A DNA stretch of 33,464 nt. Origin: Gammaproteobacteria bacterium (lineage in GTDB: Bacteria; Pseudomonadota; Gammaproteobacteria; Steroidobacterales; Steroidobacteraceae). The stretch lies in NCBI GenBank assembly GCA_028870275.1, contig JAGWPY010000179.1, positions 1 to 33,464 of the forward strand, read 5' to 3'. The notes below the pieces were generated by a model. That model ran no database searches. It saw only the letters and a program-made list of their open reading frames with translations, and was not told where the DNA came from. How positions within the stretch are numbered: the first letter of the stretch is position 1; the number at the start of each line of letters is the position of its first letter. The translations under genes were made by a program, and so were the position numbers. Below are positions 235 to 26,133 of the stretch, in pieces.

Positions 235-240
235 TATCCT
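235..240 (+). promoter_or_regulatory. -10-like box 8 nt before the aminotransferase ATG
   Basis: TATCCT matches four of six positions of the TATAAT consensus and is separated from ATG 249 by 8 bases. No good -35 hexamer is seen. It is part of the recurrent short-leader pattern described in the findings. Confidence 0.35.
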
Positions 241-248
241 CCGCGGTC

Positions 249-1415
249 ATGATCCAGGTACCGCTTCTCGACCTCAAAGCGCAATACGCGGCGATCCGCG
301 ACGAGGTCATGCCGCTCATCGAGGACGTCTGCGCCCGGCAGCAGTTCATTCTCGGCGAACACGTGCGTGAACTCGAGGCCGAACTCGCCGCCTATTCGCG
401 CTGCGCCTTCGGGATCGGCGTGTCGAGCGGCACCGACGCGCTGTTGCTCGCGCTGATGGCGCTCGGCCTCGGGCCGGGGGACGAGGTCGTGACCTCGCCG
501 TTCACCTTCTTCGCGACCGCTGGCGCGATCGCCCGCGTCGGCGCGCGGCCGGTGTTCTGCGACATCGATCCGGCGACGTTCAACCTGTCGCCGGCGGCGG
601 TGCGCGATTTCCTCGAACGCCGCTGCGAGCGGCGCGACGGCTTGTTGCGCAACCGGATCACCGGCGGCCGGGTCGCGGCGCTCATGCCGGTGCACCTGTA
701 CGGGCAATGCGCGGACATGGGACCGCTCATGGAGCTTGCGCGCGCGCACGGCCTTCGCGTCATCGAGGACGCCGCCCAGGCGATCGGCAGCGAGCACCTG
801 CATGGCGCGCGCGCGGGCTCGTTCGGCGACGTCGGCTGTTTCTCGTTCTTCCCGAGCAAGAATCTCGGGGCGTTCGGCGATGCGGGTCTGTGCACGGCAA
901 ACGATGCCGATCTCGCCGAGCACCTGCGCATCCTGCGGGTGCACGGCGGCAAGCCCAAGTATTACCACGGCTTCATCGGCGGCAATTTCCGCATCGACGA
1001 GTTACAGGCGGCGGTGCTGCGCGTGAAGCTCAAACATCTCGACGCCTGGACCGAGGGGCGTCGCCGCAATGCCGCCTGGTACGACCGGGCGTTCGCGGCC
1101 GCGGGGCTCGCCGGGCGGCTCGTGCCGCCCCGCGCGGTGCCCGGCTACCGGCACATCTACAACCAGTACGTGATTCGCGTGCCGAGGCGGGATGCGTTGC
1201 GCGCTTTCCTCGCCGAACGCGGGATCGGCACCGAGATCTATTATCCGGTGCCGCTGCATCTGCAGGAGTGCTTCGCCTATCTCGGATACCGGGTCGGCGA
1301 CCTGCCGGAATCCGAGCGCGCGGCCGCCGAGAGTCTCGCGCTGCCGGTCTATCCGGAGCTCGAGGCCGCCCAGCTCGAACACGTGGTCGCGACCATCGCG
1401 GCGTTCCACGCCTGA
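249..1415 (+). CDS. DegT/DnrJ/EryC1/StrS-family PLP aminotransferase
   Basis: This is a pyridoxal-phosphate enzyme of the family that aminates keto-sugars in surface polysaccharide, glycan or antibiotic-sugar synthesis. The fold type I signature is clear: substrate/cofactor region [11 protein letters not shown], the VIEDAAQ aspartate that contacts the pyridine nitrogen, and the Schiff-base lysine in [12 protein letters not shown] (about residue 204 of 388). The track starts at 231, but the family normally begins close to the motif [10 protein letters not shown], so I choose ATG 249. There is no Shine-Dalgarno before it, but a TATCCT box lies 8 bases upstream. No glycosyltransferase or sugar epimerase genes are adjacent, so the sugar substrate cannot be inferred. 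It is a standalone gene between divergent and convergent neighbours. Confidence 0.88.
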
Positions 1416-1440
1416 ACGTCCTTGCCGCCCTGGACCTGCG

Positions 1441-1474
1441 GTGGCCGTGGCGGGGCTGTGGCCGTGGCGGGGCT
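1441..1474. repeat. Perfect 17-bp tandem duplication
   Basis: The unit gtggccgtggcggggct occurs twice with no gap (1441-1457 and 1458-1474). It fills most of the 58-base interval between the convergent ends of the aminotransferase and glrR, and its last base is part of the glrR stop codon. It is G-rich on the plus strand. It may be a replication-slippage product. No T-tract follows, so it is not a typical terminator. Confidence 0.85.
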
Positions 1475-2919
1475 CAGGACTTCTTGAAGTCCTCGGGCAG
1501 GAGTTGGTGGCGCGACAGGAGCTTGTAGAAGTCGGTCCGGTTGCGTTTGGCGAGCCGGGCCGCCTGGCTGACGTTGCCGGCGGTGATCTGCAGGATCTGG
1601 GAGAGGTAGTTGCGGGTGAACTCGTCGCGCGCCTCGTCGAACGAGGGCAGACGGGTCGAGCCGCTGCCGAGCGACTGCTGGACGATTTCCGCGGTGATGA
1701 TCGCGCCGTGCGTCAGCGCGAAGTTCTGTCTCACGACGTTGGCGAGCTGGCGGACGTTGCCCGGCCAGTCCGCCGTGGCCAACACTTCGACCGCCTCGGG
1801 CGCGTAGATCCGCCGCTGGCCGGTTTCCTTGGCCATCTGTTCGAGGAAGTGCGCCACCAGCAGCGGAATGTCCTCGCGGTGGCGCGACAGCGGCGGCATC
1901 TCGATGTGGACCACGTTCAGCCGGTAATAGAGGTCCTCGCGATACTTGCCGGAGAGCATCTCGGCGTGCAGATCCGCGCGGGTCGCGGCGATCACCCGCA
2001 CGTTGATCGGCGTGGCCGCGCCGCCCAGGGGACGGACCGCGTTGTCCTGCAGCACGCGCAGCAGCTTCACCTGCAGGCGCATCGGCAGCTCGCCGACGTC
2101 CTCGAGAAGCAGCGTGCCGCCGTCGGCCGCGAGGAACTGGCCGCGCTGGGCCTTGGTCGCGCCCGGAAAGGCGCCCTTCTCGTGCCCGAACAGCTCCGAC
2201 TCGAGCAGGGTCTCGTCGGCGAGCGCGCAATTGACCACCACGAACGGCTGATTGCGCCGCGGGCTCGCATCGTGGATCGCGCGCGCGAGCAGCTTCTTGC
2301 CGGTGCCGCTCTCGCCCGAGATCAGCACACGCGCATCGGTGCCGGCGACCATGTTCGCCTGAGCGAGCTTGTCCTCGATGACCTGGCTGCGCGTCACGAT
2401 GCTCGCGCGCCAGGCCTCGTCGACCAGCGCGAAACCCGAGACCTTGAGCGCCTTTTGTACATGGTCGAGCAATTCCTGCTTGTCGACCGGCTTGGTGAGG
2501 AATCCGAACGCACCGCTCTGGGTCGCGTGCACCGCGTCCGGGATCGTGCCGTGCGCGGTCAGGATGATCACGCGCAGACCGGGCCAGCGGCTCTGCAGTT
2601 CCTTCAGCAGGCCGATGCCATCCATCTGGTCCATGCGCAGGTCGGTGATCACGAGATCCGGGCGGAACCGGGTGCAGGCGGCGAGCGCCGCCGCGCCGCT
2701 CTCGACCGCCTCGACCTCGTAATTCTCGGCACGCAGGCGGATCGTCAGCAGGCGCAGCAGCCCCGGGTCGTCGTCGACCACCAGGATCCTCGGCTTGCGC
2801 CGCAGCGGCGCGGCGCTCTCGCGCGCGGGGCGCGGCGTCAGGCCGAATCCGAGGCCGAGCGGGGCGGTGGCGGCGTTCAAGTAGGCATTCACGCGGGTAT
2901 CTCCCGGCTTCCTGGTCAT
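1474..2919 (-). CDS. glrR: GlrR/QseF-type response regulator with divergent sigma-54 activator core
   Basis: Response regulator of the GlrK/GlrR (QseE/QseF) envelope-stress pair, 481 residues. Order: N-terminal extension of about 43 residues; receiver domain with phospho-acceptor Asp93 (ITDLRMD) and the KPVDK lysine; AAA+ domain from about 170 to 400; Fis-type helix-turn-helix at the end (GNVSQAARLAKRNRTDFYKLLSRH), very close to E. coli GlrR. The AAA+ core is unusual: Walker A reads GESGTGKK (normally GKE), the sigma-54 contact loop reads GAFPGA (normally GAFTGA), and Walker B reads LLLEDVG (normally LDE). The Arg-finger region (REDLYYRLNV) and WPGNVRQL are intact. ATG 2919 overlaps the qseG stop as ATGA; a GTG at 2892 with a GGGAG site 8 bases upstream is an alternative start. 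Identity of the family is secure; normal sigma-54 activation is doubtful. Confidence 0.9.
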   Translation of the reverse strand: MTRKPGDTRVNAYLNAATAPLGLGFGLTPRPARESAAPLRRKPRILVVDDDPGLLRLLTIRLRAENYEVEAVESGAAALAACTRFRPDLVITDLRMDQMDGIGLLKELQSRWPGLRVIILTAHGTIPDAVHATQSGAFGFLTKPVDKQELLDHVQKALKVSGFALVDEAWRASIVTRSQVIEDKLAQANMVAGTDARVLISGESGTGKKLLARAIHDASPRRNQPFVVVNCALADETLLESELFGHEKGAFPGATKAQRGQFLAADGGTLLLEDVGELPMRLQVKLLRVLQDNAVRPLGGAATPINVRVIAATRADLHAEMLSGKYREDLYYRLNVVHIEMPPLSRHREDIPLLVAHFLEQMAKETGQRRIYAPEAVEVLATADWPGNVRQLANVVRQNFALTHGAIITAEIVQQSLGSGSTRLPSFDEARDEFTRNYLSQILQITAGNVSQAARLAKRNRTDFYKLLSRHQLLPEDFKKS

Positions 2920-3536
2920 GGCGGCGGCGCTCCGTCCGCGCCGCGTTCGTTGATCGAGCGCTCGATGTGCGTCACCGCCTCGAGCTTTGCGCGCGCATCC
3001 TGCAGCGCCTTGCGCAGCCGCGCATTCTCCTCCGCGGCGGCCGCGAGTCTGCGGGTCGCGACGCCGAGCCGGGTGCGTGCGTCGTCGTCGTTCGGCTGCG
3101 AGCGCAATCGCGCGTTCTCGCTCTCCAGCACCAGCTGCCGCTCGACTTCGCCGAGCACCACGCTCGCGAGCATCCGCTCCTCGGGAAGCAGAGTCTCGGG
3201 TCTGGCGAGGATTTCGGAAAGCTGTCGCTCGGCGGCGACGGGATCGGCGCCGCCGTGCCCCGGGGTGGCGAGCGCGAGCGCGTAGCGCAGGCGATTGGTC
3301 GTGGTCGGCGAGAGCTGGGCGGCGTCCTTGGCCGCCTGGAACTCCTCGGCCTGGCGGGCCGGATCGATCTGCGGCAGCCGGCTCATCAGCGCGAGGTCGG
3401 GTTCGATCGCGCTCGTCGGCCGCGCCGAGCGCGCGGCCGGCGGGGGCTTCTCGAGCGGCGCATGCACCAGGCTGCAGCCGCCGAGGCACAGCGCGGCGAG
3501 CGCTGCGAGGGATCGAGACGGGGGACTAGGCGGCAT
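2916..3536 (-). CDS. qseG: QseG-like outer-membrane lipoprotein between glrK and glrR
   Basis: A 206-residue predicted lipoprotein. A short basic N-terminus and a hydrophobic stretch lead to the lipobox LGGC, about residue 21, where lipidation would occur. The mature part is low in hydrophobicity and ends in a helical, heptad-like region (ESENARLRS, EENARLRKALQDARAKLEAV) likely to form a coiled coil. In E. coli the middle gene of glrK-yfhG-glrR encodes the lipoprotein QseG (YfhG), which modulates the kinase; position, length and coiled coil fit that role here. Sequence identity alone is weak, so the name rests largely on context. It overlaps the end of glrK by 11 bases and its stop overlaps the glrR ATG, so translation is likely coupled. 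Confidence 0.75.
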   Translation of the reverse strand: MPPSPPSRSLAALAALCLGGCSLVHAPLEKPPPAARSARPTSAIEPDLALMSRLPQIDPARQAEEFQAAKDAAQLSPTTTNRLRYALALATPGHGGADPVAAERQLSEILARPETLLPEERMLASVVLGEVERQLVLESENARLRSQPNDDDARTRLGVATRRLAAAAEENARLRKALQDARAKLEAVTHIERSINERGADGAPPP

Positions 3537-5007
3537 GGACGGTGTTTTCGCTGTTCAGGTCGGTCGGTGCGGGCATGGACTGGCGCAGTGGCAGGCGCAC
3601 GCGGAAATGAGCGCCGCCGGCGGGTGCGTCGAGGATCTCGATGCTGCCACCGTGCGCGTTGACGAATTCCGTGACCACCGACAGACCGATGCCCGTGCCC
3701 TTGACGTGACCGCCCTGCGGGATCCTTCCCTGGTAGAAAGCCTCGAAAATCTGCGCGCGCTCCTCGGCCGGAACCCCCGGGCCGCTGTCGATCACGTCGA
3801 GCACCATCTGCGCGCCCTCCCGGCGTGCGTGGATCGAGATGGTGCCCCCGCGTGGCGTGAATTTGATCGCATTCGACAGGAGGTTGTCGAGGATCAGGCG
3901 AACCTTGCTGCGATCGGCGAGGGGGGTGAGGTCCTCCACCTGGACGTCGAGGCGCACGCGCTGCGCGACCAGCGTGAGCTGCTGGTTCTCGAGTACGCTC
4001 TTCACCAGTGGGCGCATGCGGAACTCCGAGACCTCCAGGCCGACGCTCTTCGCCTGCCAGGCGCTGAAGCTCAGCAGGTTCTCGATGAGACGCTGCAGCT
4101 TCATGCTGTTCTCGCGCAGGATCGCGGCGACCTCGCGCTGCGCGCCGCGCAGTTCCCCGACCGCGCCGTCCATGAGGAGTTCGGTGCCTTCACGGATGTT
4201 CGCGAGCGGCGTCTTGAGTTCGTGGGACATGTGTCTCAGGAACCGGTTCTTCTCCTGGGCGAGTTCGAGCAGGCGCGAGCGCAGCCATTCGAGCTGTTCG
4301 GCGAGATGCTCGAGGTCCTTCGGGCCGCGGATCGTGATGGGCCGGGAGAAGGCGCCGCGGCCGAGTTCGTTGATCGCCCGGTCGATCGCCCGAATCGGTC
4401 GTCCGAACAGGTAGGTGAACACGCCGACGACGGCGAGCGTGAGCGGCACGAGCAGCAGCGTCTGCCATAGGAGCGTGTGGCGGGTGTGTTCCGCGGCGAG
4501 CTGCAGGTTGGTGAGATCGAGGTCGATCTGGGCGTTGCTGCGATTGGAGATCCGCGAGGCGATGTCCGAGAGGTGCGGGAACTCGCCGATCAACGCGTTC
4601 ATCGGCGCGGCGCTCGGGGCGGTCGCGCGCATCCGCACCAGCATCGCGCGGGCCTCCTCCTCGAGCGAGCGCAGGTCCGCGCGTGTCGGCGCATCGAGCG
4701 GCAGTCGTTCGAGGGCGCCGGCCGCCTGTTCGAGCCGGCCCGTCGCGCGTGCGTAGGTGTCGAGCAGGTCGGGCCCGCCGAGGATCTGATAGAGGCGGGC
4801 GGTGCGCTCGAGCACCCCGATGTTCTCGAACAGCAGCTGGGTGTTGCGCGTGCCCTGCATGCCGTGGATCACGAGCTCCTGGCTGCGGTTCGAGAGGCGA
4901 TTCATCTGCACGGCCGCGCTCACGATCGCGAACAGCAGTGGGATCGCCACGATCGTGAAGCCGACCAGCATCAGCCCGCTCAGCGATTTCGGCCGAGGAA
5001 TACGCAT
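3526..5007 (-). CDS. glrK: GlrK/QseE sensor histidine kinase
   Basis: Inner-membrane sensor kinase of 493 residues. Two membrane helices (about 11-33 and 178-200) flank a roughly 145-residue helical periplasmic sensor. A HAMP linker follows (FGRPIRAIDRAINELGRGAF), then the dimerisation/phospho-acceptor helix RHMSHELKTPLANIREGTELL with His262, then a complete ATPase domain: N box DNLLSNAIKF, G1 DSGPGVP and G2 GTGIGLSV. The H-box region is nearly the same as in E. coli GlrK. The track extends upstream in frame to 5496, but that part lies antisense to srkA. I prefer ATG 5007, which lies 7 bases after a TAGAAT box; ATG 5016 is an alternative. First gene of a three-gene overlapping operon with qseG and glrR. 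Confidence 0.9.
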   Translation of the reverse strand: MRIPRPKSLSGLMLVGFTIVAIPLLFAIVSAAVQMNRLSNRSQELVIHGMQGTRNTQLLFENIGVLERTARLYQILGGPDLLDTYARATGRLEQAAGALERLPLDAPTRADLRSLEEEARAMLVRMRATAPSAAPMNALIGEFPHLSDIASRISNRSNAQIDLDLTNLQLAAEHTRHTLLWQTLLLVPLTLAVVGVFTYLFGRPIRAIDRAINELGRGAFSRPITIRGPKDLEHLAEQLEWLRSRLLELAQEKNRFLRHMSHELKTPLANIREGTELLMDGAVGELRGAQREVAAILRENSMKLQRLIENLLSFSAWQAKSVGLEVSEFRMRPLVKSVLENQQLTLVAQRVRLDVQVEDLTPLADRSKVRLILDNLLSNAIKFTPRGGTISIHARREGAQMVLDVIDSGPGVPAEERAQIFEAFYQGRIPQGGHVKGTGIGLSVVTEFVNAHGGSIEILDAPAGGAHFRVRLPLRQSMPAPTDLNSENTVHAA

Positions 5008-5014
5008 GCGCGGC

Positions 5015-5020
5015 ATTCTA
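5015..5020 (-). promoter_or_regulatory. -10-like box TAGAAT in front of glrK
   Basis: On the minus strand TAGAAT (five of six matches to TATAAT) is followed by 7 bases and ATG 5007. If it is the -10 element, transcription would start at or within a couple of bases of the start codon. It overlaps the alternative ATG 5016, which argues for the 5007 start. Confidence 0.45.
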
Positions 5021-5049
5021 GCAGCGCCGCGCGACGGTGCGGCGCCGGG

Positions 5050-5055
5050 TAGAAT
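5050..5055 (+). promoter_or_regulatory. -10-like box TAGAAT in front of srkA
   Basis: TAGAAT followed by 8 bases and ATG 5064, the mirror image of the arrangement in front of glrK. Only 29 bases separate the two divergent boxes, so the upstream parts of the two promoters must overlap. No consensus -35 is visible for either. Confidence 0.45.
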
Positions 5056-5063
5056 CGGCGCCG

Positions 5064-6035
5064 ATGCGCAAGAACACGCCCTACGCCGATCTGTCGCCCG
5101 AGGCCGTGCTGGCCGCGGTCGAGTCCGCCGGAGGGGCCACCGACGGCCGCGTTCTAGCGCTGAACAGCTACGAGAACCGGGTCTATCAGATCGGCATCGA
5201 GGACGGCGAGCCCCTGGTCGCGAAGTTCTATCGGCCGGCTCGCTGGAGCGACGCGGCGATCCTCGAGGAACATGCCTTCGCGCTCGAGCTCGCCGCCCTG
5301 GAGATCCCGGTGGTCGCGCCACTGCGAATCGACGGGTGCACGCTTCACCAGTACGAGGGATTCCGCTTCGCCCTGTTCCCGCGTCGCGGCGGACGCTGGC
5401 CGGAACTCGGCCGGGCGGACGACCGCGAGTGGCTGGGGCGTTTCCTCGGGCGCATCCATCGTGCCGGCCTCGCTGGGCGTTTTGCCCACCGTGCACCCTT
5501 GCGGGTCGAGGAACTCGGCCGCCGCTCGCGCGACTTCCTGCTCGAGGGGGGCTGGCTGCCCGACTATCTGCAGGGCAAGTACGCCGACCTCACCGACGCG
5601 CTGCTCGAGGCGGTCGAAAGCCGCGCCGACGGCTGGGCGGGCGCGCGGCTCGGCCGGATCCACGGTGACTGCCATCGCGGCAACATTCTCTGGACCGACG
5701 CCGGTCCGCACTTCGTCGACCTGGACGACTGCACGACCGGTCCGGCGGTCCAGGACCTGTGGATGCTGCTCGCCGGATCGGCGGGCGAGATCGAGACGCA
5801 GTTGCAGGACCTGCTGCGTGGCTACGAACAATTCATGCCCTTCGACCGCGGCGAACTCGCGCTGATCGAGCCACTGCGGGCGCTACGCATGATCCACTAC
5901 ACCGCCTGGATCGCGCGCCGATGGCAGGATCCGGCCTTTCCGCGCGCGTTTCCGTGGTTCGCCGAGCCGCGATACTGGGAAGAGCATTATCGCGCGCTCG
6001 ACGAGCAGTTGGCCGCCATTGTTGGTAATCTATGA
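5064..6035 (+). CDS. srkA: Stress response kinase A (YihE family)
   Basis: A cytoplasmic Ser/Thr protein kinase of the aminoglycoside-phosphotransferase fold, 323 residues, close to E. coli SrkA/YihE (328). E. coli SrkA counters programmed death by limiting MazF-type toxicity under stress. Seen directly: the family signature LNSYENRVYQ, the ATP-binding lysine in LVAKFYRP, the catalytic loop HGDCHRGNILW, and the metal-binding FVDLDD. A conserved C-terminal block follows (PALQDLWMLL-like, then IEPLRALRMIHYTAWIARRW). The track's GTG at 5037 would start upstream of the -10-like box; ATG 5064 gives the usual family N-terminus. No Shine-Dalgarno is seen. An unknown lipoprotein gene begins 4 bases after its stop, probably in the same unit. 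Confidence 0.93.
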   Translation: MRKNTPYADLSPEAVLAAVESAGGATDGRVLALNSYENRVYQIGIEDGEPLVAKFYRPARWSDAAILEEHAFALELAALEIPVVAPLRIDGCTLHQYEGFRFALFPRRGGRWPELGRADDREWLGRFLGRIHRAGLAGRFAHRAPLRVEELGRRSRDFLLEGGWLPDYLQGKYADLTDALLEAVESRADGWAGARLGRIHGDCHRGNILWTDAGPHFVDLDDCTTGPAVQDLWMLLAGSAGEIETQLQDLLRGYEQFMPFDRGELALIEPLRALRMIHYTAWIARRWQDPAFPRAFPWFAEPRYWEEHYRALDEQLAAIVGNL

Positions 6036-6039
6036 GGCC

Positions 6040-6693
6040 ATGCGCCGTCCACGACCGCCCGCGCCGAACCTCGACCGGTTGCCGCTCGATTCACGGTTCA
6101 CCTGCTGCCGGGCGGTGTTGCTCGGGCTGCTCGCGATGCTGGGCGGCTGCCATCATTCCGATACCGCGGCCGGCCCGGCTCCGGTCTTTCAGAGGCATCG
6201 ATCCGCAAAGCCCGGCGGACCCACGGTCGCGCAACAGACGGCCGGAATGGTCGATGCGCCGAGTCTGACCAAGGCCCTGCCAGGATTTCAACTGAAGTTC
6301 GACCTGCAGGCGCGGCCCACCCCGCATGCACCGCTCACCCTCGACCTCGCGATCGTGCCCTCGGGGTTCGCCGAACTGGCCGCGGTCGACGTCGAGCCGC
6401 CCGCCGAGGTACAGCTGGCGCCCGCCGACCGTCAGTACACCGTGAGTGCGCTCGAGCCGCAGACGGTCTATCGGCATTCGGTCAATCTCACGCCGATCGC
6501 GTCCGGCATGGTCATGATCGGGGTGAACGTCGCGGTGCGTCACGACGGTGTCATCGATACGCTCAAGTTCGCGATTCCATTGATGATCGGTGGTCCGGGG
6601 GCGAAAGTGCCGCCGCCTTCGAGCGCGGCCGCCACGCCGGTCGCAACTACGCCGGGCACGCCGGGCACGTCCGACACACCCGACACGCACTGA
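6040..6693 (+). CDS. Predicted lipoprotein of unknown function
   Basis: 217 residues. After a basic proline-rich N-terminus (about 30 residues) comes a hydrophobic stretch and a lipobox LGGC followed by HHSD, so it is probably a lipoprotein. The middle (about 75-190) alternates short hydrophobic strands with polar turns and looks like a beta-sandwich domain; I do not recognise a family. The tail is low complexity ([14 protein letters not shown]), encoded by short GC-rich repeats. It starts 4 bases after srkA. A TAATCT box inside the last srkA codons lies exactly 8 bases before its ATG, so it might also have its own promoter. The TTG at 6019 in the track would overlap srkA and is less likely. 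Confidence 0.7.
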
Positions 6694-6703
6694 CGGCGTA
6701 TCC

Positions 6704-6722
6704 CGCCCATCTCGCATGGGCG
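6704..6722. promoter_or_regulatory. Perfect inverted repeat upstream of typA
   Basis: CGCCCAT-ctcgc-ATGGGCG, a 7-bp perfect stem with a 5-base loop, just after the lipoprotein stop and 14 bases upstream of a TATAGT box. It could be the terminator of the srkA unit (a short TTTT run follows 8 bases later) or an operator covering the -35 region of typA. The sequence does not decide between these. Confidence 0.4.
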
Positions 6723-6736
6723 AGGAGATTTTCGCG

Positions 6737-6742
6737 TATAGT
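6737..6742 (+). promoter_or_regulatory. Probable -10 element of typA
   Basis: TATAGT, five of six matches to the sigma-70 -10 consensus, 35 bases upstream of the typA GTG. No recognisable -35 hexamer lies at normal spacing; the inverted repeat 6704-6722 occupies that place. Confidence 0.4.
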
Positions 6743-6777
6743 AGCGAGTTTGCCCTCGCTCTTTCGAAGTACCACCC

Positions 6778-8613
6778 GTGACCAGCAAACTCCGCAACAT
6801 CGCGATCATCGCGCACGTAGACCACGGCAAGACCACGCTCGTCGACCAGCTGCTGCGCCAGTCCGGCACGCTCGACACCCGCAAGGACGTCGAGGAGCGC
6901 GTCATGGACTCCAACGCGCTCGAGAAGGAGCGCGGCATCACGATTCTCGCGAAGAACACGGCGATCAACTGGGGCGAGTATCGCATCAACATCGTCGATA
7001 CCCCCGGGCATGCCGATTTCGGTGGCGAGGTCGAGCGGGTGCTCGCGATGGTCGACTCTGTGCTGCTGCTCGTCGATGCGGTCGACGGGCCGATGCCGCA
7101 GACCCGGTTTGTCACCCAGAAGGCGTTCGCGCACGGCTTGCGGCCGATCGTCGTGATCAACAAGATCGACCGCGACGAAGCCCGGCCCGGCTGGGTGCTC
7201 GACCAGACCTTCGATCTGTTCGATCGGCTCGGCGCCACCGACGCGCAACTCGATTTCCCGGTCGTCTACGCCTCGGCGCTGCGCGGCTTCGCGAGCCTCG
7301 ACCCGGCCGCGCGCGGCGGCGACATGCGCGCGCTGTTCGAGACGATCGTGGCGCACTGTCCGCCGCCCGACGTCGATGAAAAGGGCGCTCTGCAGCTGCA
7401 GGTCACCCTGCTCGACTATTCGAGCTACGTCGGCGCGATCGGCATCGGCCGCATCAAGCGTGGCACATTGCGTCGCGGCATGGCGGTCACGGTGGTCGAC
7501 CGGGACGGTCGCCAGCGCGCCGAGAAGATCTCGCAGATCCTCGGTTTCCATGGCCTGACCCGGGTCGAGGTCGAGAGCGCGGCGGCCGGCGACATCGTCG
7601 CCTTCGCCGGCATCCCCGAACCCAAGGTCTCCGAGACCCTCTGCGATCCGGCGGCCGTCGAGCCGCTGCCGGCGCTCACGGTCGACGAGCCGACCATCAG
7701 CATGACCTTCGAGGTCAATACCTCGCCGTTCCTCGGCCGCGAGGGCCGCTTCGTCACGAGCCGGCAGATCCGCGAGCGGCTGGAGCGGGAGTCGATCCAC
7801 AACGTCGCGCTGCGGGTCGAGCCGACCGCCGATCCCGACAAGTTCATCGTCTATGGGCGCGGCGAACTGCACCTTGGCGTGCTGCTCGAGAACATGCGCC
7901 GCGAGGGCTACGAGCTCGCGGTGTCGCGCCCTCGGGTGGTGATTCGCGAGATCGACGGCCGTCCGCACGAGCCTTACGAACAGGTCACGGTCGACGTCGA
8001 CAGCGACGCCCAGGGCGACGTGATGAACGCGCTCGGCACGCGCGGCGCGGCGCTGTCGGACATGCAGCCGGACGGCCGGGGCCGGGTGCGCCTCGACTAC
8101 ATGATTCCCTCGCGCGGTCTGATCGGCTTCCAGACGGAGTTTCGCACCCTGACCCGCGGCACCGGCCTGCTGCACCACGTCTTCGATCATTACGGACCGC
8201 TGGTGCAGCGAGAACTCGGCCAGCGGCCACAGGGCGTGCTGGTCGCCAATGGCCAGGGCACGGCTCTCGCCTACGCGCTGTTCAGCCTGCAGGAGCGTGG
8301 GCGCCTGTGCATCGGTCACGGCGACGAAGTCTACGAGGGCATGATCATCGGCATTCACAACCGCGAGAACGATCTCGTCGTGAATCCGCTGAAGGGCAAG
8401 AAGCTCACCAACATCCGCGCCGCGGGCAAGGACGAGAACGTCGTGCTGTCCCCGCCGGTGCGCTTCACGCTCGAACAGGCCATGGAGTTCATCGACGACG
8501 ACGAGCTCATCGAAATCACGCCGGGCTCGATCCGCCTGCGCAAGCGCTTCCTGCGTGAGGCCGACCGCCGCCGATCCGGCAGGGAAGCCGTCGATCAGGG
8601 CGCGGCCGGCTGA
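6778..8613 (+). CDS. typA: Ribosome-associated translational GTPase TypA/BipA
   Basis: A 611-residue GTPase of the EF-G/LepA group that binds the ribosome and supports 50S assembly, cold growth and stress responses. G1 AHVDHGKTT (near residue 12), G2 ERGITI, G3 DTPGHADF, G4 NKID and G5 SAL are all intact. They are followed by the beta-barrel domain 2, two EF-G-like domains, and the TypA-specific C-terminal domain. That domain carries [11 protein letters not shown] and the conserved [14 protein letters not shown] segment that contacts the peptidyl-transferase region. The start is GTG 6778; it gives the family's normal N-terminus ([18 protein letters not shown]) and no in-frame ATG fits. Length and motifs are typical. 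It is probably a single-gene unit. Confidence 0.97.
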
Positions 8614-8789
8614 TCCGCCGGCCGACCGCGGCGCCGCAGCGGCGCGGCGAGCCGGGGGCATTTAACCGTTTGAGGGCCGAAACGAGACGCGGATCACGCA
8701 CCCGTTGAGGGATCTCCCTAACACTTGCGGCTGGTATGGATTACCCACGGCGGTTCGGCCGTCGGTCGCCTCAGGGAGGTTCTGCAGCC
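8614..8789. other. Intergenic region between typA and the GGDEF/EAL gene
   Basis: 176 bases. It holds a short very GC-rich hairpin (GCGCCG-cag-CGGCGC, 8631-8645) without a T-tract, and a strong Shine-Dalgarno (AGGGAGG at 8773-8779) near its end. No known riboswitch or clear sigma-70 promoter is recognisable to me. Confidence 0.5.
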
Positions 8790-12407: not shown

Positions 12408-12419
12408 CCGCGCCATGCG

Positions 12420-13664: not shown

Positions 13665-13670
13665 TAATCT
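13665..13670 (+). promoter_or_regulatory. -10-like box 8 nt before the dusA ATG
   Basis: TAATCT followed by 8 bases and ATG 13679; the same hexamer and spacing occur before the lipoprotein gene at 6040. No Shine-Dalgarno is present. Confidence 0.35.
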
Positions 13671-14700: not shown

Positions 14701-14713
14701 GGCGCGATGCGCC
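14701..14713. promoter_or_regulatory. Inverted repeat overlapping the cyclase promoter
   Basis: GGCGC-gat-GCGCC, perfect 5-bp arms, ending 8 bases before the TATAAT box of the next gene. It occupies the spacer/-35 zone, where an operator would sit. It might instead be a weak terminator hairpin for dusA. Confidence 0.35.
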
Positions 14714-14721
14714 AGATTAAG

Positions 14722-14727
14722 TATAAT
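14722..14727 (+). promoter_or_regulatory. Consensus -10 element (TATAAT) of the cyclase-FHA gene
   Basis: A perfect TATAAT, rare in such GC-rich DNA, 11 bases before ATG 14739. A start site 6-8 bases downstream would leave only about 4 leader bases, and no Shine-Dalgarno is visible. No -35 consensus is seen. Confidence 0.55.
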
Positions 14728-14738
14728 CGTGCCGCGAC

Positions 14739-15638: not shown

Positions 15639-15659
15639 TCGGACTGAGCCGACCCGGGG

Positions 15660-15677
15660 CCGGCGGTTCCGCGCCGG
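15660..15677. terminator. Hairpin between convergent cyclase-FHA and pckG genes
   Basis: CCGGCG-gttccg-CGCCGG, a perfect 6-bp stem with a 6-base loop, central in the 45-base gap between two convergent stop codons. No T-tract on either strand, so bidirectional termination is only a suggestion from position. Confidence 0.3.
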
Positions 15678-15683
15678 ACGCCT

Positions 15684-17459: not shown

Positions 17460-17522
17460 GCGAATTCCTCGTCTTTTGCGCCCCGAATGCCGGAGCCGTT
17501 CTCCGCGCAGTAGTGTACCATA

Positions 17523-17535
17523 GGCATAAAATGCC
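17523..17535. promoter_or_regulatory. Palindrome in the pckG/DUF11 divergent region
   Basis: GGCAT-aaa-ATGCC, a perfect inverted repeat between the divergent genes; its right arm contains the ATG (17531) of the rightward gene. It lies upstream of the possible pckG -10 (TACACT at 17516-17511, minus strand). It could be an operator serving both genes, or chance. Confidence 0.3.
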
Positions 17536-18118: not shown

Positions 18119-20100
18119 TGGGCAGCGACGTCGCGCGTCTGTTCGCCGCCGAGGGTCCGCTCGCCCGGGCGCTGCCGGATTACGCGCATCGCCCGGAACA
18201 GGCGGCGATGGCGGTCGCCGTGGCCCGGGCGATCGAACGCGGCGAACCGCTGCTGGTCGAAGCCGGCACCGGCATCGGCAAGACCTTCGCGTACCTGGTA
18301 CCGGCGCTGCTGTCGGGGCGCCGGGTGATCGTTTCGACCGGCACCCGCACGCTGCAGGATCAGTTGTATCGGCGCGATTTACCGCTGCTCGCGCGCGCGC
18401 TCGGCAGTCCCGTGCGCGTCGCGCTGCTCAAGGGCCGCGCCAACTATCTGTGCCGGCATCGGCTCGAGCTTGCGGTGCGGCAGCGTGGGCTGCCGGGTTT
18501 CGAGCGCGCTGCAACGCGGACTCTGGCGCGGGTCGAGCGCTGGGCCGCCAGCACGCGCGCCGGCGATCTGGCCGAGCTCACCGACCTGCCGGAGCACTCG
18601 CCGCTTTGGCCGCAGATCACCTCGACGCGCGAGAACTGCCTGGGCGCGGAGTGCCGCTACCACGCCGAGTGCCACGTGCTCGAGGCGCGGCGCGAGGCCC
18701 AGGCGGCCGACCTCGTGGTGGTCAATCATCATCTGCTGCTCGCCGATCTGGCGCTCAAGGACGAGGGCTTCGGCGACCTGCTGCCGGGCGCGGACGCGGT
18801 GATCCTCGACGAAGCGCACCAGGTCCCGGAGATCGCCGCGCAGTTCTTCGGCCGGTCCTGGTCGACGCGGCAGGTCGATCTGCTGGTGCGGGACGCCCAG
18901 GCCGAGATCGCCGCGGCCGCGGTCGACTCCGGCCGGACCGCCGCGACGCTCGGCGAGCTCACGGAGCGTTGCGCGGGGTTGCGCCGCGCGCTCGGTTCGG
19001 CGCCGTCGCGGGTCGAATGGGCGCGCGTGCCGGACGCTTTCGTCGAGGAGCTCGAGGCGATCGAGCGCGCACTCGGCGAGTGCGACGCGCGCCTGCAGGA
19101 ACTTGCGGCCGGTGCGGCGCTCACGGCCTGCGCCCGGCGCGCGCGTGCCGCGGCCGATTCGCTCGCGGCGTTGCGCGCCTGCGGCGACGAGGATGGTCTG
19201 CGCTGGGTGGAGTGCGGCCCCGCGGCGATCACGCTGCAGTTCACTCCCTTCGAGATCGCCGAGCGCCTGCGCGAGGCGGTGCAAGGCCAGGGCTCGGCCT
19301 GGATCTTCACCTCGGCGACCCTCGCCGTGGCGGGCGACTTCGCCCATTTCGCGGCACGCGTCGGTCTCGCGGATGCGCGCGCGTTCGCACTCGACAGCCC
19401 GTTCGACTACGCGCGTCAGGCGCGCATCCTGCTGCCCTCGGGCATGCCCGATCCGCAGTCGGGGCAATATCCGCAGGCGTTCGTCGAGGCGGTCGCCCCG
19501 CTGCTCGAGGCGGGCGGCGGACGCGCCTTCCTGCTCTTCACCAGCCACCGCGCGCTCGGTGAGGGGCTCGCGGCGCTCGAGCGCCGTTTTCCGCAGCCGC
19601 CCTTCCCGGTGCTGGTGCAGGGCCAGGCGCCTCGCGAGGCGCTGCTCGCGCGCTTCCGCGAACTCGGCCGGGCGGTGCTGCTCGCCACGGCGAGCTTCTG
19701 GGAGGGCGTGGACGTCAAGGGCGATGCCTTGGCGATCGTCGCGATCGACAAGCTGCCGTTCGCTTCGCCCGACGACCCTCTGCTCGCCGCCCGGCTCGAG
19801 GGCATACGCCGGCGCGGCGGCAACGGCTTCACCGAGCACCAGCTGCCCCAGGCGGTGCTCGCCCTCAAACAGGGCGCGGGCCGGCTGATCCGCGATTTCG
19901 ACGATTTCGGCGTGATCGTGATCGGCGATCCGAGGATCGCGCGCAAGTCCTACGGCCGCGCATTCCTCGCGGCGCTGCCGCCCTGTCCCGTGCTCACCGA
20001 CCCGGCCGAGGCCGCGCGCTTTCTCGCCGGGCGGCTCGCGGCGCACGCGCGCCAGCGCGCAAACCCGGCGAGCGCGGCGAACTCGGCGAGCGAAGCATGA
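18118..20100 (+). CDS. yoaA: YoaA/DinG-family iron-sulfur DNA helicase
   Basis: A superfamily 2 XPD-like helicase of 660 residues. Walker A is EAGTGIGKT (about 48-56) and the DEAH box is at 231-234 (VILDEAHQ). Four cysteines between them (Cys112, Cys174, Cys179, Cys185; YLCRHR and ENCLGAECRYHAEC) are the expected 4Fe-4S ligands. Late helicase motifs are present: TSATL, LFTSHRAL, FWEGVDVKGD and QGAGRLIRD. E. coli YoaA works with the polymerase clamp loader subunit chi in repair of replication-blocking damage. I call yoaA rather than dinG because it is directly followed by tsaB, as in E. coli, and the length fits. ATG 18118 overlaps the upstream stop by one base; its own stop overlaps the tsaB start (ATGA). 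Confidence 0.93.
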   Translation: MGSDVARLFAAEGPLARALPDYAHRPEQAAMAVAVARAIERGEPLLVEAGTGIGKTFAYLVPALLSGRRVIVSTGTRTLQDQLYRRDLPLLARALGSPVRVALLKGRANYLCRHRLELAVRQRGLPGFERAATRTLARVERWAASTRAGDLAELTDLPEHSPLWPQITSTRENCLGAECRYHAECHVLEARREAQAADLVVVNHHLLLADLALKDEGFGDLLPGADAVILDEAHQVPEIAAQFFGRSWSTRQVDLLVRDAQAEIAAAAVDSGRTAATLGELTERCAGLRRALGSAPSRVEWARVPDAFVEELEAIERALGECDARLQELAAGAALTACARRARAAADSLAALRACGDEDGLRWVECGPAAITLQFTPFEIAERLREAVQGQGSAWIFTSATLAVAGDFAHFAARVGLADARAFALDSPFDYARQARILLPSGMPDPQSGQYPQAFVEAVAPLLEAGGGRAFLLFTSHRALGEGLAALERRFPQPPFPVLVQGQAPREALLARFRELGRAVLLATASFWEGVDVKGDALAIVAIDKLPFASPDDPLLAARLEGIRRRGGNGFTEHQLPQAVLALKQGAGRLIRDFDDFGVIVIGDPRIARKSYGRAFLAALPPCPVLTDPAEAARFLAGRLAAHARQRANPASAANSASEA

Positions 20101-20807
20101 GCGGCCCGCGCCTTCTCGCGCTCGACGCATCGACCGAGGCCTGCTCGGCGGCGGTGCGTGTCGGCGGCGAGACCATCGAACGCTACGAGGAACCCGGCTC
20201 GGCGCAGTCCGAGCGTCTGCTCGAGCTGGCTGGCGCGGTGATGGCCGAGGCGGGACTCGCCTACGCCGGGCTCGACGCGATCGCGGTCGGCGTGGGTCCC
20301 GGGGCGTTCACCGGGGTGCGCATCGGCGTCGCGCTCGCCCAGGGGCTCGCGTTCGGCGCGGGCCTCGCCTTGCTGCCGGTCACGACGCTGGAAATGCTCG
20401 CGGCCGCGGCGACGTCTCAGGCGGCGGGCGAGGGCGCGGTGCTCGCCTGCCTCGATGCGCGCATGGCTGAACTCTATTGGGGGGTCTACCGGCCCGATGT
20501 GCTGCGCGGTGTCGAGGCGCTGGCCTCCCCCCGCGTCGGATCGGAGGAGTCGCTGCGCGCGGCGCGGCCGGCTTGCGTGCGCGGCCTCGGCAGGGGGTTC
20601 GCCGCCTACCCGGGGCTCGCGGCGGCGCTCGGTATCCCGGTCGAGCCCGCCGATGCACGCCGTCTGCCGCGCGCTGCGGACCTGGCATGGCTCGGGGAGT
20701 TGCGTCTGCGGGCGGGGGAAGCGCTCGACCCGGCCGCCATCAGCCCGGTCTACCTGCGCGACAAGGTGGCGCGGACCGAGGCCGAGCGCGCGCAGGGACG
20801 CCCCTGA
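20097..20807 (+). CDS. tsaB: tRNA N6-threonylcarbamoyladenosine synthesis protein TsaB
   Basis: The TsaB (YeaZ) subunit of the TsaBDE complex that makes t6A37 in ANN-decoding tRNAs; 236 residues. It has the ASKHA-type fold seen in TsaB: LALDASTEACSAAV at the start, the conserved QSERLLELAG helix, and GVGPGAFTGVRIGVALAQGLAFG, the family signature that forms the interface with TsaD. ATG 20097 overlaps the yoaA stop as ATGA. It is the last gene of the DUF11-yoaA-tsaB chain; phoB follows 51 bases later behind a Pho box. Confidence 0.95.
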   Translation: MSGPRLLALDASTEACSAAVRVGGETIERYEEPGSAQSERLLELAGAVMAEAGLAYAGLDAIAVGVGPGAFTGVRIGVALAQGLAFGAGLALLPVTTLEMLAAAATSQAAGEGAVLACLDARMAELYWGVYRPDVLRGVEALASPRVGSEESLRAARPACVRGLGRGFAAYPGLAAALGIPVEPADARRLPRAADLAWLGELRLRAGEALDPAAISPVYLRDKVARTEAERAQGRP

Positions 20808-20813
20808 CGGCCT

Positions 20814-20847
20814 TTGTCACGCGACTGTCACATCGGGCGGGTGTAAT
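20814..20847 (+). promoter_or_regulatory. Pho box and -10 element of phoB
   Basis: Two 7-base half-sites, TTGTCAC (20814-20820) and CTGTCAC (20825-20831), 4 bases apart (11-base period), match the PhoB half-site consensus CTGTCAT. Ten bases later comes TGTAAT (20842-20847), a -10 element. This is the class II PhoB-dependent layout in which the Pho box replaces the -35. The expected start near 20854 leaves about 5 leader bases before ATG 20859. It implies positive autoregulation of phoBR. Confidence 0.8.
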
Positions 20848-20858
20848 CGCGAACCCAT

Positions 20859-21554
20859 ATGAGCGCCAAGCGCATCCTCATCGTCGAAGACGAGAAGCCC
20901 ATTCGCGACATGGTCGCGTTCGGATTGCGCCGGGCCGGCTACGAGGTCGCCGAGGCCGAGGATTGCCGGGAGGCGCGCGCCCGCATCGCCGATCAGCGTC
21001 CGGACCTCATGCTGGTCGACTGGATGTTGCCCGACATGAGCGGTCTCGAACTCACCCGGACGCTCAAGCGCGACCGGGACTGCGAGGACATCCCGATCAT
21101 CATGCTCACCGCCCGCGCCGAGGAACAGGACAAGGTCGGTGGCCTGGAGGGCGGCGCCGACGACTACATGACCAAGCCGTTCTCGCCCCGCGAGCTGCTG
21201 GCGCGCATCCAGGCGGTCCTGCGCCGCGCCGCGCCGGGTGGCGGCGAGGACGTGATCGAGTTCGACCGCCTGCGTCTCGACGACTCCAGCCACCGGGTGA
21301 GCTGCGGCGAGGAGGAGATCGCGCTCGGTCCCACCGAATACCGCCTGCTGCATTTCTTCATGACGCACACGGAGCGGGTGTTCACGCGAGGCCAGCTGCT
21401 CGATCGGGTCTGGGGCGGCAATACCTACGTCGAGGAACGCACCGTGGACGTGCACATCCGCCGCCTGCGCAAGGCGCTGGAGCCGTCGGGGCTCGATCGC
21501 CTGGTGCAGACCGTGCGCGGCTCGGGCTACCGGTTCTCGAATCGCGACGCGTGA
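20859..21554 (+). CDS. phoB: Phosphate regulon response regulator PhoB
   Basis: OmpR/PhoB-family transcription factor, 231 residues, activated by PhoR under phosphate limitation. The receiver domain has the acidic pair in [12 protein letters not shown], phospho-acceptor Asp54 ([12 protein letters not shown], the same number as in E. coli), the Thr of MLTARAEE and Lys of [10 protein letters not shown]. The winged helix DNA-binding domain (about 130-230) contains [13 protein letters not shown] and the recognition helix [16 protein letters not shown]. No Shine-Dalgarno is seen before ATG 20859. phoR follows 38 bases downstream. The upstream Pho box indicates autoregulation. Confidence 0.97.
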
Positions 21555-21578
21555 GCAGCGCGGCCGCCTGAAAGGTGG

Positions 21579-21584
21579 TAAAAG
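21579..21584 (+). promoter_or_regulatory. Weak -10-like box before phoR
   Basis: TAAAAG, four of six to TATAAT, followed by 8 bases and ATG 21593. It could give phoR an extra leaderless promoter inside the phoB-phoR operon. The run CTAAAGG touching the ATG is too close to be a good ribosome site. Confidence 0.2.
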
Positions 21585-21592
21585 CCTAAAGG

Positions 21593-22924
<1,332 letters not shown>

Positions 22925-22976
22925 ACGAACGCCCTTAGCGACGCCCGAGGTCGCGTCCCGACCGAGAAGGACCCGC

Positions 22977-23708
22977 ATGGAAATCGCCGATCTCACCCAC
23001 CACACCTCCCGCAGGTTCAACGAGGACCTGGAAAAGGTCCGCAACCAGGTCCTGCAGATGGGCGGGTTCGTCGAGGAACAGCTGCACAAGGCCATCGCCG
23101 CCCTGGTCGACGGCGACAGCAAGCTCGGCGAGCTGGTGGCGACCGAGGACTACAAGGTCAACGGCATGGAGGTGTCGATCGACGAGGAATGCAGCCGCAT
23201 CCTCGCGCTGCGGGCGCCCGCCGCCGGGGACCTCAGGGTGATCGTCGCGATCATCAAGACGATCACGGACCTCGAGCGGATCGGCGACGAGGCCGAGAAG
23301 ATCGGCCACATCGCCTTGCGGCTCGCGACCATGGAACGACCCGCCGACAAGTACCGGGAGGTCAAGCACCTCGGCCGGCACGTCGCGCGCATGGTGCACG
23401 ACGCGCTGGACGCGTTCGCGCGCATGGACGCGAAGGCGGCGCTGCAGACCGCGCGCGAGGACCGGATGGTCGATGAGGAATACGAATCGATCCAGCGTCA
23501 GTGCATGACTTTCATGATGGAGGATCCCCGGCAGATCCGCCGGGCCCTCGAGATCATGTGGATCGTGCGCGCGCTCGAGCGCATCGGCGATCACGCCAAG
23601 AACATGTGCGAATACGTGGTGTACATGGTCTACGGCAAGGACATCCGCCACACCTCGCTGGAAGACGTCTCGCGCGAACTGGAAGGGCCCGCGGAGGCGC
23701 GGCGATGA
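22977..23708 (+). CDS. phoU: PhoU phosphate signalling protein (first copy)
   Basis: 243 residues, all helical, two PhoU repeats. Each carries the metal-binding E/DxxxD-type signature: LERIGDEAEKIGHIA in the first and LERIGDHAKNMCEYV in the second. PhoU links the Pst transporter to PhoR and keeps PhoR in the phosphatase state when phosphate is plentiful. This copy looks like the canonical one (E. coli-like N-terminus with FNEDLEKVRNQVLQMGG). It sits after phoR rather than after pstB. The track begins at 22758 inside phoR in another frame; ATG 22977 has an AGGA site 6 bases upstream. Its stop overlaps the dsbB ATG as ATGA. A second, divergent PhoU ends the pst operon. Confidence 0.95.
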   Translation: MEIADLTHHTSRRFNEDLEKVRNQVLQMGGFVEEQLHKAIAALVDGDSKLGELVATEDYKVNGMEVSIDEECSRILALRAPAAGDLRVIVAIIKTITDLERIGDEAEKIGHIALRLATMERPADKYREVKHLGRHVARMVHDALDAFARMDAKAALQTAREDRMVDEEYESIQRQCMTFMMEDPRQIRRALEIMWIVRALERIGDHAKNMCEYVVYMVYGKDIRHTSLEDVSRELEGPAEARR

Positions 23709-24205
23709 GCGCGCGCCAGGTGAATCTCCTCGGCTTCCTCGCCTGCGCGGCGCTGCTCGGCTACGCCTATTACGCGCAGTTCCATCTGCACCTCGATCCC
23801 TGCCCGTTGTGCATCTTCCAGCGCGTCGGCGTGTTCGCCACGGGACTCGTGTTCCTGATCGCGGCCGTCCAGGCTCCGCGGGGCTGGGGTCGGCGCGTCT
23901 ATGCGACGCTGATCATGCTCACCTCGGGCGCGACCATCGGCGTCGCCGCGCGCCAGCTCTACATCCAGCACCTGCCGCCGGACGCGGTGCCGAGCTGCGG
24001 GGCTTCGCTCGACATCATGCTCAAGTTCCTGCCGCTGAAGGACGTGCTGGTCAAGGTGCTGTCCGGATCGGGCGAATGCGCCAAGGTCGACTGGCGCTTC
24101 CTTGGCCTCGCCATGCCCGCCTGGGTGCTGATCGCCGCGCTCGCACTCGGCGCCTTCGGCGTGCTCGGCAACCTGCGCGGCACGGCGCGCCCGCAGCACC
24201 GCTGA
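23705..24205 (+). CDS. dsbB: Disulfide bond formation protein DsbB
   Basis: A four-helix inner-membrane oxidoreductase (166 residues) that reoxidises periplasmic DsbA and passes electrons to quinone. The first periplasmic loop has the redox pair Cys33-Pro-Leu-Cys36 ([10 protein letters not shown], a family signature). The second loop has Cys98 (PSCGASLD) and Cys125 (GECAKVDW), the pair that attacks DsbA. The conserved Arg (QR after CPLC) that helps bind quinone is present. Hydrophobic segments lie at about 7-24, 42-57, 66-83 and 133-154. It overlaps the phoU stop by four bases (ATGA) and is followed 13 bases later by dapE; no dsbA is in the window. Confidence 0.95.
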
Positions 24206-24218
24206 GGAGCGCCGAACG

Positions 24219-25361
24219 ATGTCGGCGACGCTCGATCTCACGCGGGCACTGATCGCGCGCGCCTCGGTCAGCCCGAACGACGCGGGCTGTCAGGCGCTCA
24301 TGACCGAGCGGCTCGCCTCGCTCGGCTTTCGGATCGAGCCGCTGCCGTTCGGTCCGGTCGAGAACTTCTGGGCCGAACGCCGCGGCGCTGGCGGGACCGA
24401 CGGGCCGGTATTCTGCTTCGCGGGCCATACCGACGTGGTGCCGACCGGGCCGGTCGAGGACTGGCACAGCGAACCGTTCACGCCGCTCGAGCGCGACGGC
24501 TATCTCTACGGCCGCGGCGCGGCGGACATGAAGAGCGCGCTCGCGGCGATGCTGACCGCCTGCGAGGCCTTCGTCGCCGCGCAACCCGACCACCGCGGCA
24601 GCATCGCGTTCCTGATCACGAGCGACGAGGAGGGACCGTCGGTCGACGGCACCCGACGCGTCGTCGAGGTGTTGCGCGAACGCCGGCAGCGCATCGACTG
24701 GTGCCTGGTCGGCGAGCCTTCGAGCGAGCAACGGCTCGGCGACGTGGTGAAGATCGGCAGGCGCGGCAGTCTCAGCGGCCGGCTGACCGTGCACGGGATC
24801 CAGGGCCACATCGCCTATCCGGATACCGCCGACAACCCGGTGCACCGGCTCGCTCCGGCGCTGGCCGAACTGGTGGCGCGGCACTGGGACCAGGGCAACG
24901 AGCATTTCCAGCCGACGAGTTTCCAGATATCGAACATCGCGGCCGGCACCGGCGCGCCAAACGTGATTCCGGGCGAGCTCAAGGCGCGCTTCAATCTGCG
25001 CTTCTCGACCGAGCAGACGGTGCAGTCCCTGCAGGCGGCGGTCGAGGAAGTGCTTTCGCGACATGGGGTCCGGTATTCGCTGGAGTGGTTCGTCTCGGGC
25101 CTGCCGTTTCTGACCCGCCCCGGTGAATTGTCGGCCGCGGTGTGCGCCGCGGTGCGCGAGGAGCTCGGCTACGATCCGCGCCTGTCGACCGGGGGCGGCA
25201 CCTCCGACGGCCGATTCATCGCGCCGCTCGGCGCCCAGGTGGTCGAACTCGGCGTGGTCAACGCCACCATCCACAAGGTCGACGAGTGCGTGCGCATCGA
25301 GGACGTGGATCGCCTGCACCTGCTGTACCTGCGTACGCTCGAGCGTCTCCTAGGACGTTGA
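24219..25361 (+). CDS. dapE: Succinyl-diaminopimelate desuccinylase DapE
   Basis: A dizinc M20-family hydrolase (380 residues) that splits N-succinyl-LL-2,6-diaminopimelate into succinate and LL-diaminopimelate for lysine and peptidoglycan. Metal and catalytic residues are visible: His70 and Asp72 ([11 protein letters not shown]), Asp103 ([12 protein letters not shown]), Glu137 and Glu138 (TSDEEGPS), and the late His in NATIHKVDE. The DapE motifs [12 protein letters not shown] and [19 protein letters not shown] are intact, as is the middle dimerisation domain. ATG 24219 has GAGGAG about 9 bases upstream. It is the last gene of the phoB-to-dapE run, and its end overlaps by 12 bases the end of the convergent permease gene. 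dapD, an earlier pathway step, lies 5.4 kb further on. Confidence 0.96.
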
Positions 25362-26120
25362 GTCCAGCGTGCGCGCGATCATGTAGATCGCCACCGCGAA
25401 CAGGACGGCGGCGAAGATCCGCGTGAGGCCCCGGCCGCCGGTGCCGAGACGCGTCGCCACGGCGATGCCGGCCGCGCCACCGAGCACACCGCCTGCGAGG
25501 AATTCGAGCGCGACACGCCATTCGATCATGCCCGACCACGCATAGTTCGCGGCGGTCGTCAGGCCGAACGCGCCGACCGACAGGAGCGAGGATCCGACCG
25601 CGTCCAGGATCGACAGGCCGCCGCCGAACATCAGCGCCGGCACGATCAGGAAACCGCCGCCGATGCCGAAGAACCCCGAGGCGGCGCCGGTCGCGAGCCC
25701 GAGACCCGCGAGCCTCGCGGCGATCGCGACCGTGAACGGCGGCGCGATCGCGCCGCGGTCGCGGCGCGGCCGCAGCATCGCGAAGGCCACGGCGAACATC
25801 GCCAGCGCGAACAGAATCAGGAGCTTGCGGCCATCGATCAGCTTGCCGAGGCTCGAGCCGAGGGCGGCTCCCGCGACGCCGAACAGCGCGAACGTGGCGG
25901 CCTGAGCCCAGCGCACGTGCCCGTGCCGCCAATGTCCCAGGAAGTTGCCGAGCGCATTCGCGCCCACCGATAGCGCACTGGTGCCGATCGCCACGTGGGG
26001 GTCGCTCACTCCGACCACGTACATCAGCAGGGGAACCGCGAGGATCGATCCGCCGCCGCCGATCAGCCCCAGGCTGAACCCGACCGCGGCCCCGCACAGC
26101 GTCGCCAGAAGCGTTTGCAT
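25350..26120 (-). CDS. TSUP-family (TauE/SafE) membrane permease
   Basis: A predicted inner-membrane transporter of 256 residues with about eight hydrophobic segments in two related halves. Each half carries the family's glycine-rich loop: [19 protein letters not shown] near the start and [17 protein letters not shown] in the middle. TSUP proteins (formerly DUF81) export or import sulfite, sulfoacetate, taurine or similar small anions; the substrate here is not evident. The track start is ATG 26132, but ATG 26120 lies 7 bases after a TATGCT box and fits the short-leader pattern. The C-terminus overlaps the dapE end by 12 bases. It is divergent from pstS; the Pho box lies about 64 bases from its start, pointing towards pstS. 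Confidence 0.88.
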
Positions 26121-26127
26121 CGCGCCC

Positions 26128-26133
26128 AGCATA
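26128..26133 (-). promoter_or_regulatory. -10-like box of the TSUP permease gene
   Basis: Minus-strand TATGCT (four of six to TATAAT), then 7 bases and ATG 26120. It includes the alternative ATG 26132, which would be untranslatable if this is the -10. Confidence 0.35.

What the first reader, a model, noticed from the sequence alone, without database searches (positions are those of the whole stretch)
235..26133. Recurrent -10-like hexamer 7-11 bases before start codons: likely widespread leaderless mRNAs
Genes that lack a Shine-Dalgarno repeatedly show a TATAAT-like hexamer just before the ATG: aminotransferase TATCCT-8-ATG, glrK TAGAAT-7, srkA TAGAAT-8, lipoprotein TAATCT-8, dusA TAATCT-8, cyclase-FHA TATAAT-11, DUF11-like TACCAT-9, phoB TGTAAT-11, TSUP permease TATGCT-7, and more weakly phoR TAAAAG-8. 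In DNA this GC-rich such AT-containing hexamers at a fixed spacing should be uncommon. Transcription would begin on or within a few bases of the start codon. Genes with clear ribosome sites (hppD, pckG, GGDEF/EAL, phoU, dapE, pstS, pstC) do not show it. The phoB case is independently supported by the Pho box position. Leaderless promoters of this shape are well known in Deinococcus and Actinobacteria, less so in Gammaproteobacteria.
Basis: partly seen in the sequence, partly recalled or inferred. Interest (0 to 1): 0.72.

Follow-up and report, generated by a model that had tools for sequence, protein, structure and literature searches.

The report
Leaderless genes with promoter-abutting start codons
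In this GC-rich gammaproteobacterium (family Steroidobacteraceae) a minority of genes carry their promoter box 6-8 bases before the start codon, conserved across related species, so their mRNAs probably begin at the start codon without a ribosome-binding leader; this is known in other bacteria, but one conserved gene pair appears to share a single two-way promoter of this kind.

Summary
In 0.97 Mb of the same MAG outside the window, TANNNT peaks 6-7 bases before ATG in genes heading transcription units (27/314 at spacers 5-9; shuffled 8.9 +/- 3.1) and is weak inside operons. Relatives decide which cases hold. Box and spacing are conserved for glrK (68/77 loci), the aminotransferase, cyclase-FHA and, within the genus, srkA; SD genes pck and phoU show none. 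Three loci picked outside the window by promoter score (prlC, a protease, cysQ/HAD) were also conserved. phoB is near-leaderless in five species but has a ~30-35-nt leader in most. The lipoprotein, dusA, DUF11, TSUP and phoR cases are unsupported. Such genes are known, including in Xanthomonadales and Legionellales; the excess here is about 4% of ATG genes. Most novel: one symmetrical TATNATA between the divergent cysQ and HAD start codons ~20 bp apart. No transcript data were available.

The parts
235..240 (+). -10 element TATCCT of the aminotransferase, spacer 8; preceded by TG (TGCTATCCT, 232-240: extended -10)
   Evidence: TANNNT conserved at spacer 6-9 in 8/9 relatives, expectation 0.9; alignment
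249..1415 (+). DegT-type aminotransferase CDS; start is ATG249, not the in-frame ATG231, whose conserved counterpart is followed by an in-frame TAG in two relatives
3529..5007 (-). glrK-like sensor kinase CDS, start ATG5007
   Evidence: N-terminal residues P6 K7 S8 L9 invariant in 11 orthologues
5015..5020 (-). -10 element TAGAAT of glrK, spacer 7, extended -10 TGCTAGAAT (5015-5023)
   Evidence: TANNNT at spacer 4-9 in 68/77 Steroidobacteraceae loci, TAGAAT in 50; SD 4-mer in 2/77
5050..5055 (+). -10 element TAGAAT of srkA, spacer 8
   Evidence: conserved in most genus members at spacer 6-8; 21/65 across the family against 4.7 expected
5008..5063 (.). 56-bp glrK/srkA intergenic region holding two divergent promoters that abut both start codons
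   Evidence: sequence
14722..14727 (+). -10 element TATAAT of the cyclase-FHA gene, spacer 11 (leader of about 4-5 nt expected)
   Evidence: 23/25 relatives with TANNNT at spacer 6-12 against 2.2 expected; TTAAGTATAAT block
20813..20833 (+). Pho-box-like TTTGTCACGCGACTGTCACAT upstream of phoB
   Evidence: conserved in relatives with the downstream TGTAAT
20842..20847 (+). -10 element TGTAAT of phoB, spacer 11
   Evidence: conserved, but spacer is 6, 7, 9, 11, 12 in five species and about 29-35 in most other genus members
13665..13670 (+). TAATCT before dusA, spacer 8: candidate, not conserved
6026..6031 (+). TAATCT before the lipoprotein ORF: inside the 3' end of srkA, not conserved; probably chance
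17516..17521 (+). TACCAT before the DUF11-like ORF: not conserved in the two distant matches
26128..26133 (-). TATGCT before the TSUP permease: no orthologue in the relatives' syntenic DNA, untested

Best explanation
A minority of genes in this Steroidobacteraceae MAG use sigma70-type promoters whose -10 element (TAGAAT/TATAAT-like, sometimes with an extended TGn) lies 6-8 bases before the start codon. RNA polymerase would start on, or within about two bases of, the first base of the start codon, giving mRNAs with no room for a Shine-Dalgarno site, which are then translated from the 5'-terminal AUG or GUG, as known from other bacteria. Shown: sequence, position, weakness in operons, conservation, lack of SD. 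Inferred: promoter activity, 5' end, leaderless translation. A few neighbours (cyclase-FHA, phoB) would have leaders of only a few bases.
For: Positional peak at spacer 6-7 outside the window in TU-heading genes, 27/314 against 8.9 +/- 3.1, weak inside operons. Conservation: glrK 68/77 loci against 2.7 expected, SD 2/77; aminotransferase 8/9, cyclase-FHA 23/25, srkA in most genus members. Out-of-sample loci chosen by promoter score: prlC 15/21, protease 8/10, cysQ 16/26, HAD 15/19. SD controls pck and phoU: box 1/10 and 1/9, SD 10/10 and 9/9. Same pattern in Deinococcus MP1 (17/69 TU heads) and no peak in E. coli (4/62) with annotated starts. The box is experimentally a -10 element of leaderless genes in Deinococcus at ~6-7 bp (PMC12340547). 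N-termini are conserved from the called start.
Against: No RNA data. Unsupervised motif models on the own genome were dominated by SD and did not recover the box, as the class is small. Coding-only start calls were exact for about 76% of annotated genes in two control genomes. srkA loses the box in much of the family (21/65).
Confidence: 0.85

Rival explanations
1. Ordinary promoters with normal leaders: transcription starts just after the box but the true start codon lies further downstream.
For: phoB has its conserved -10 box about 29-35 bases before ATG in most relatives, and typA keeps TATAAT about 24-28 bases upstream, so leadered promoters are common here.
Against: Protein N-termini are conserved right after the called starts in glrK, prlC, cyclase-FHA and the aminotransferase, and no SD precedes the genes: glrK 2/77.
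Confidence: 0.08
2. Chance AT-rich hexamers picked because several start codons per gene were available.
Against: Window excess over shuffles with the same choice of starts, genome-wide peak outside the window, conservation in relatives.
Confidence: 0.04
3. The conserved hexamer is a regulator's operator or a translation signal rather than a -10 element.
For: No -35 element was demonstrated; only the box itself was tested.
Against: The same box precedes functionally unrelated genes, fits TATAAT with TG extension in some, is weak inside operons, and at phoB and typA the same kind of box sits at leadered distances, as a promoter but not a ribosome signal would.
Confidence: 0.03

Closest known systems
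TA-led leaderless genes of bacteria (Zheng et al. 2011, PMC3160421)
   Same: TANNNT about 12 bp upstream of the start (first T), in genes without SD; already reported for 15 of 239 gammaproteobacterial genomes, chiefly Xanthomonadales and Legionellales, at 3.0-5.7% of genes.
   Different: No report on Steroidobacteraceae was found; conservation gene by gene across a family is added here; the favoured box in the best case is TAGAAT.
Deinococcus -10-motif adjacent to ORFs (PMC12340547)
   Same: TANNNT about 6-7 bp before the start codon, conserved among orthologues, experimentally shown to be the -10 region.
   Different: There it is a main mode; here a minority (Deinococcus MP1 17/69 TU heads against 27/314 here).
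Bidirectional promoters with a symmetrical -10 element (Warman/Grainger; PMC10268837, PMC12825309)
   Same: cysQ/HAD shares the symmetrical TANNNTA layout, start points expected about 18 bp apart.
   Different: Both flanking start codons lie at the expected transcription start points, so both mRNAs would be leaderless.

Membership tests
Leaderless (TA-led) bacterial genes | TANNNT-like -10 box about 6-8 bp before the start codon, above chance | tested here: met
Leaderless (TA-led) bacterial genes | No Shine-Dalgarno site | tested here: met
   glrK SD 4-mer 2/77; prlC 2/21, cyclase-FHA 1/25
Leaderless (TA-led) bacterial genes | Gene heads its transcription unit | tested here: met
   peak in divergent or well-separated genes, weak in operons
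Leaderless (TA-led) bacterial genes | Transcript 5' end at or within about 5 nt of the start codon | not testable with these tools
   no RNA data
Leaderless (TA-led) bacterial genes | Translation initiates on the 5'-terminal start codon | not testable with these tools
   no ribosome data
Symmetrical bidirectional promoter (cysQ/HAD) | TANNNTA, so that -11A and -7T coincide reciprocally on the two strands | tested here: met
   TANNNTA in all 14 genus-level loci where both genes aligned, TATNATA in 13 of them; G009 (L314) lacks the box
Symmetrical bidirectional promoter (cysQ/HAD) | T at -18 relative to each start point | tested here: inconclusive
   read by eye: present on one strand if the start points are 18 bp apart, not on the other
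Symmetrical bidirectional promoter (cysQ/HAD) | Measured divergent start points 18 bp apart | not testable with these tools
   no RNA data

The most novel reading that the evidence does not exclude
In this genus one 7-bp symmetrical -10 element (TATNATA) in a ~19-bp gap between the divergent cysQ-like and HAD-hydrolase genes fires in both directions and yields two leaderless mRNAs, so the core promoter fits between two start codons and any -35 contacts would lie inside the opposing coding sequences. A search of an open-access library found no bacterial report combining bidirectional promoters with leaderless mRNAs.
Probability: 0.6. Interest if true: 0.55.

Novelty: new member of a known kind. 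Interest (0 to 1): 0.4.

Why it matters
It extends bacterial leaderless genes, gene by gene and with cross-species conservation, to an environmental gammaproteobacterial family, and names genes (glrK, prlC, cysQ/HAD) where it can be tested in cultured relatives such as Steroidobacter or Povalibacter. It affects start-codon annotation: the -10 region can hold an in-frame ATG upstream of the real start (ATG231 against ATG249). phoB gives a natural series in which a leader is present or nearly absent in close species under the same Pho-box promoter, useful for asking how leaders are gained or lost.

Tried and rejected
Unsupervised one- and two-motif EM converged on SD or composition in the own genome and gave no usable leaderless fraction. 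A first footprint printout did not reorient minus-strand loci and was discarded (redone). A search for more TANNNTA pairs between close divergent starts found only cysQ/HAD in the own sample and none in the family sample, so the bidirectional layout is not general. The genus and family profiles include glrK-centred loci and are not used as independent estimates. dusA orthologues gave no consistent start.

Full report
What was checked. The window is one whole contig (33,464 bp) of a 2.91-Mb, 86%-complete MAG. A scan of species-representative genomes with a glrK alignment returned unnamed Gammaproteobacteria MAGs and Steroidobacteraceae, with Steroidobacter, Peristeroidobacter and Povalibacter as the nearest named organisms.

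Observation. Every hexamer in the finding is at its stated place. Allowing each gene its near-optimal starts (2.8 on average), 8 of 27 genes have TANNNT at spacer 7-11, against 1.50 +/- 1.17 when each upstream stretch is shuffled; none of 1000 shuffles reached 8.

Genome-wide test. I called genes by codon score and chose starts by coding score and start-codon prior only, without upstream signals. The same caller hit 61/80 annotated starts in E. coli K-12 and 78/103 in Deinococcus MP1 exactly. In 0.97 Mb outside the window, 314 ATG genes that head a transcription unit have TANNNT at spacer 6 in 13 and spacer 7 in 7 cases, against 0-5 at each spacer from 8 to 25; 27 at spacers 5-9 against 8.9 +/- 3.1 shuffled (maximum 19 in 300). 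Inside operons it is 7/237 against 4.1 +/- 1.9. A second, broader rise about 26-44 bases upstream fits ordinary leadered promoters. The excess is about 18 genes, 6% of TU-heading ATG genes and about 4% of all ATG genes, uncorrected for start errors and for boxes not fitting TANNNT. With annotated starts, Deinococcus MP1 shows 17/69 at spacers 5-9 and E. coli 4/62 with no peak.

Conservation. glrK has TANNNT at spacer 4-9 in 68 of 77 loci (50 TAGAAT; 21 with TG extension), expectation 2.7, SD 4-mer in 2, including Steroidobacter gossypii, S. agaridevorans, Peristeroidobacter and Povalibacter uvarum. Other counts at spacer 4-12: aminotransferase 8/9, cyclase-FHA 23/25, srkA 21/65 across the family but most of the genus. 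Controls: pck 1/10 and phoU 1/9, with SD in 10/10 and 9/9; typA 1/29, its TATAAT lying about 24-28 bases upstream. For the aminotransferase the upstream in-frame ATG231 is part of the extended -10 region, and relatives G002 and G006 have an in-frame TAG between it and the real start.

Out-of-sample test. I ranked own-genome candidates by a fixed -10 matrix and fetched orthologues of some of the best outside the window: prlC 15/21 (starts mostly GTG), a protease 8/10, cysQ 16/26 and its divergent neighbour HAD 15/19. A fourth (GST) could not be fetched.

phoB. A Pho-box-like repeat and TGTAAT are conserved, but the distance to ATG is 6, 7, 9, 11 or 12 in five genus members (this one 11) and about 29-35 in most others. 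So phoB is near-leaderless only in some species.

Not supported. The lipoprotein hexamer lies within srkA's 3' end and is not conserved; dusA, DUF11 and phoR show no consistent box; TSUP had no orthologue in the set.

Mechanism. With a 6-base spacer the usual start point falls on the first base of the start codon, so a leaderless mRNA is the simplest reading. Promoter activity, the 5' end and leaderless translation are inferred. The box is known to act this way in Deinococcus, where it sits ~6-7 bp before the ORF (PMC12340547), and TA-led genes are described in bacteria including gammaproteobacteria (PMC3160421).

Special case. Between cysQ and HAD, one TATNATA lies about 5-7 bases from one start codon and 7-8 from the other, the two about 20 bp apart, in nearly all genus-level loci aligned. 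Known bidirectional promoters usually have start points 18 bp apart on a symmetrical -10 (PMC10268837). A systematic search of the samples found no further pair.

Limits. One third of the genome was read; there are no transcript or protein data; related genomes are not independent observations; the literature library is open-access only.

Noticed in passing
L068 (G000:C67) 829-849: Divergent HAD hydrolase and cysQ-like genes with a single symmetrical TATCATA between start codons about 20 bp apart, conserved across the genus.
   Followed up: yes
L081 (G000:C80) 1351-1378: Another divergent pair with overlapping -10-like boxes on both strands in a ~26-bp gap; not tested in relatives.
   Followed up: no
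window 20779-20859 and L082-L111: phoB promoter conserved but leader length differs between close species (about 6-12 or about 29-35 nt).
   Followed up: yes
window 6737-6778: typA has a conserved TATAAT-type box roughly 24-35 bases before its GTG start and an SD 4-mer in only 1 of 29 loci: a short leader without SD.
   Followed up: partly
window 231 and 249: An upstream in-frame ATG next to the -10 box could mislead gene callers.
   Followed up: yes
window 5008-5063: glrK and srkA share a 56-bp intergenic region with two divergent start-abutting promoters.
   Followed up: partly
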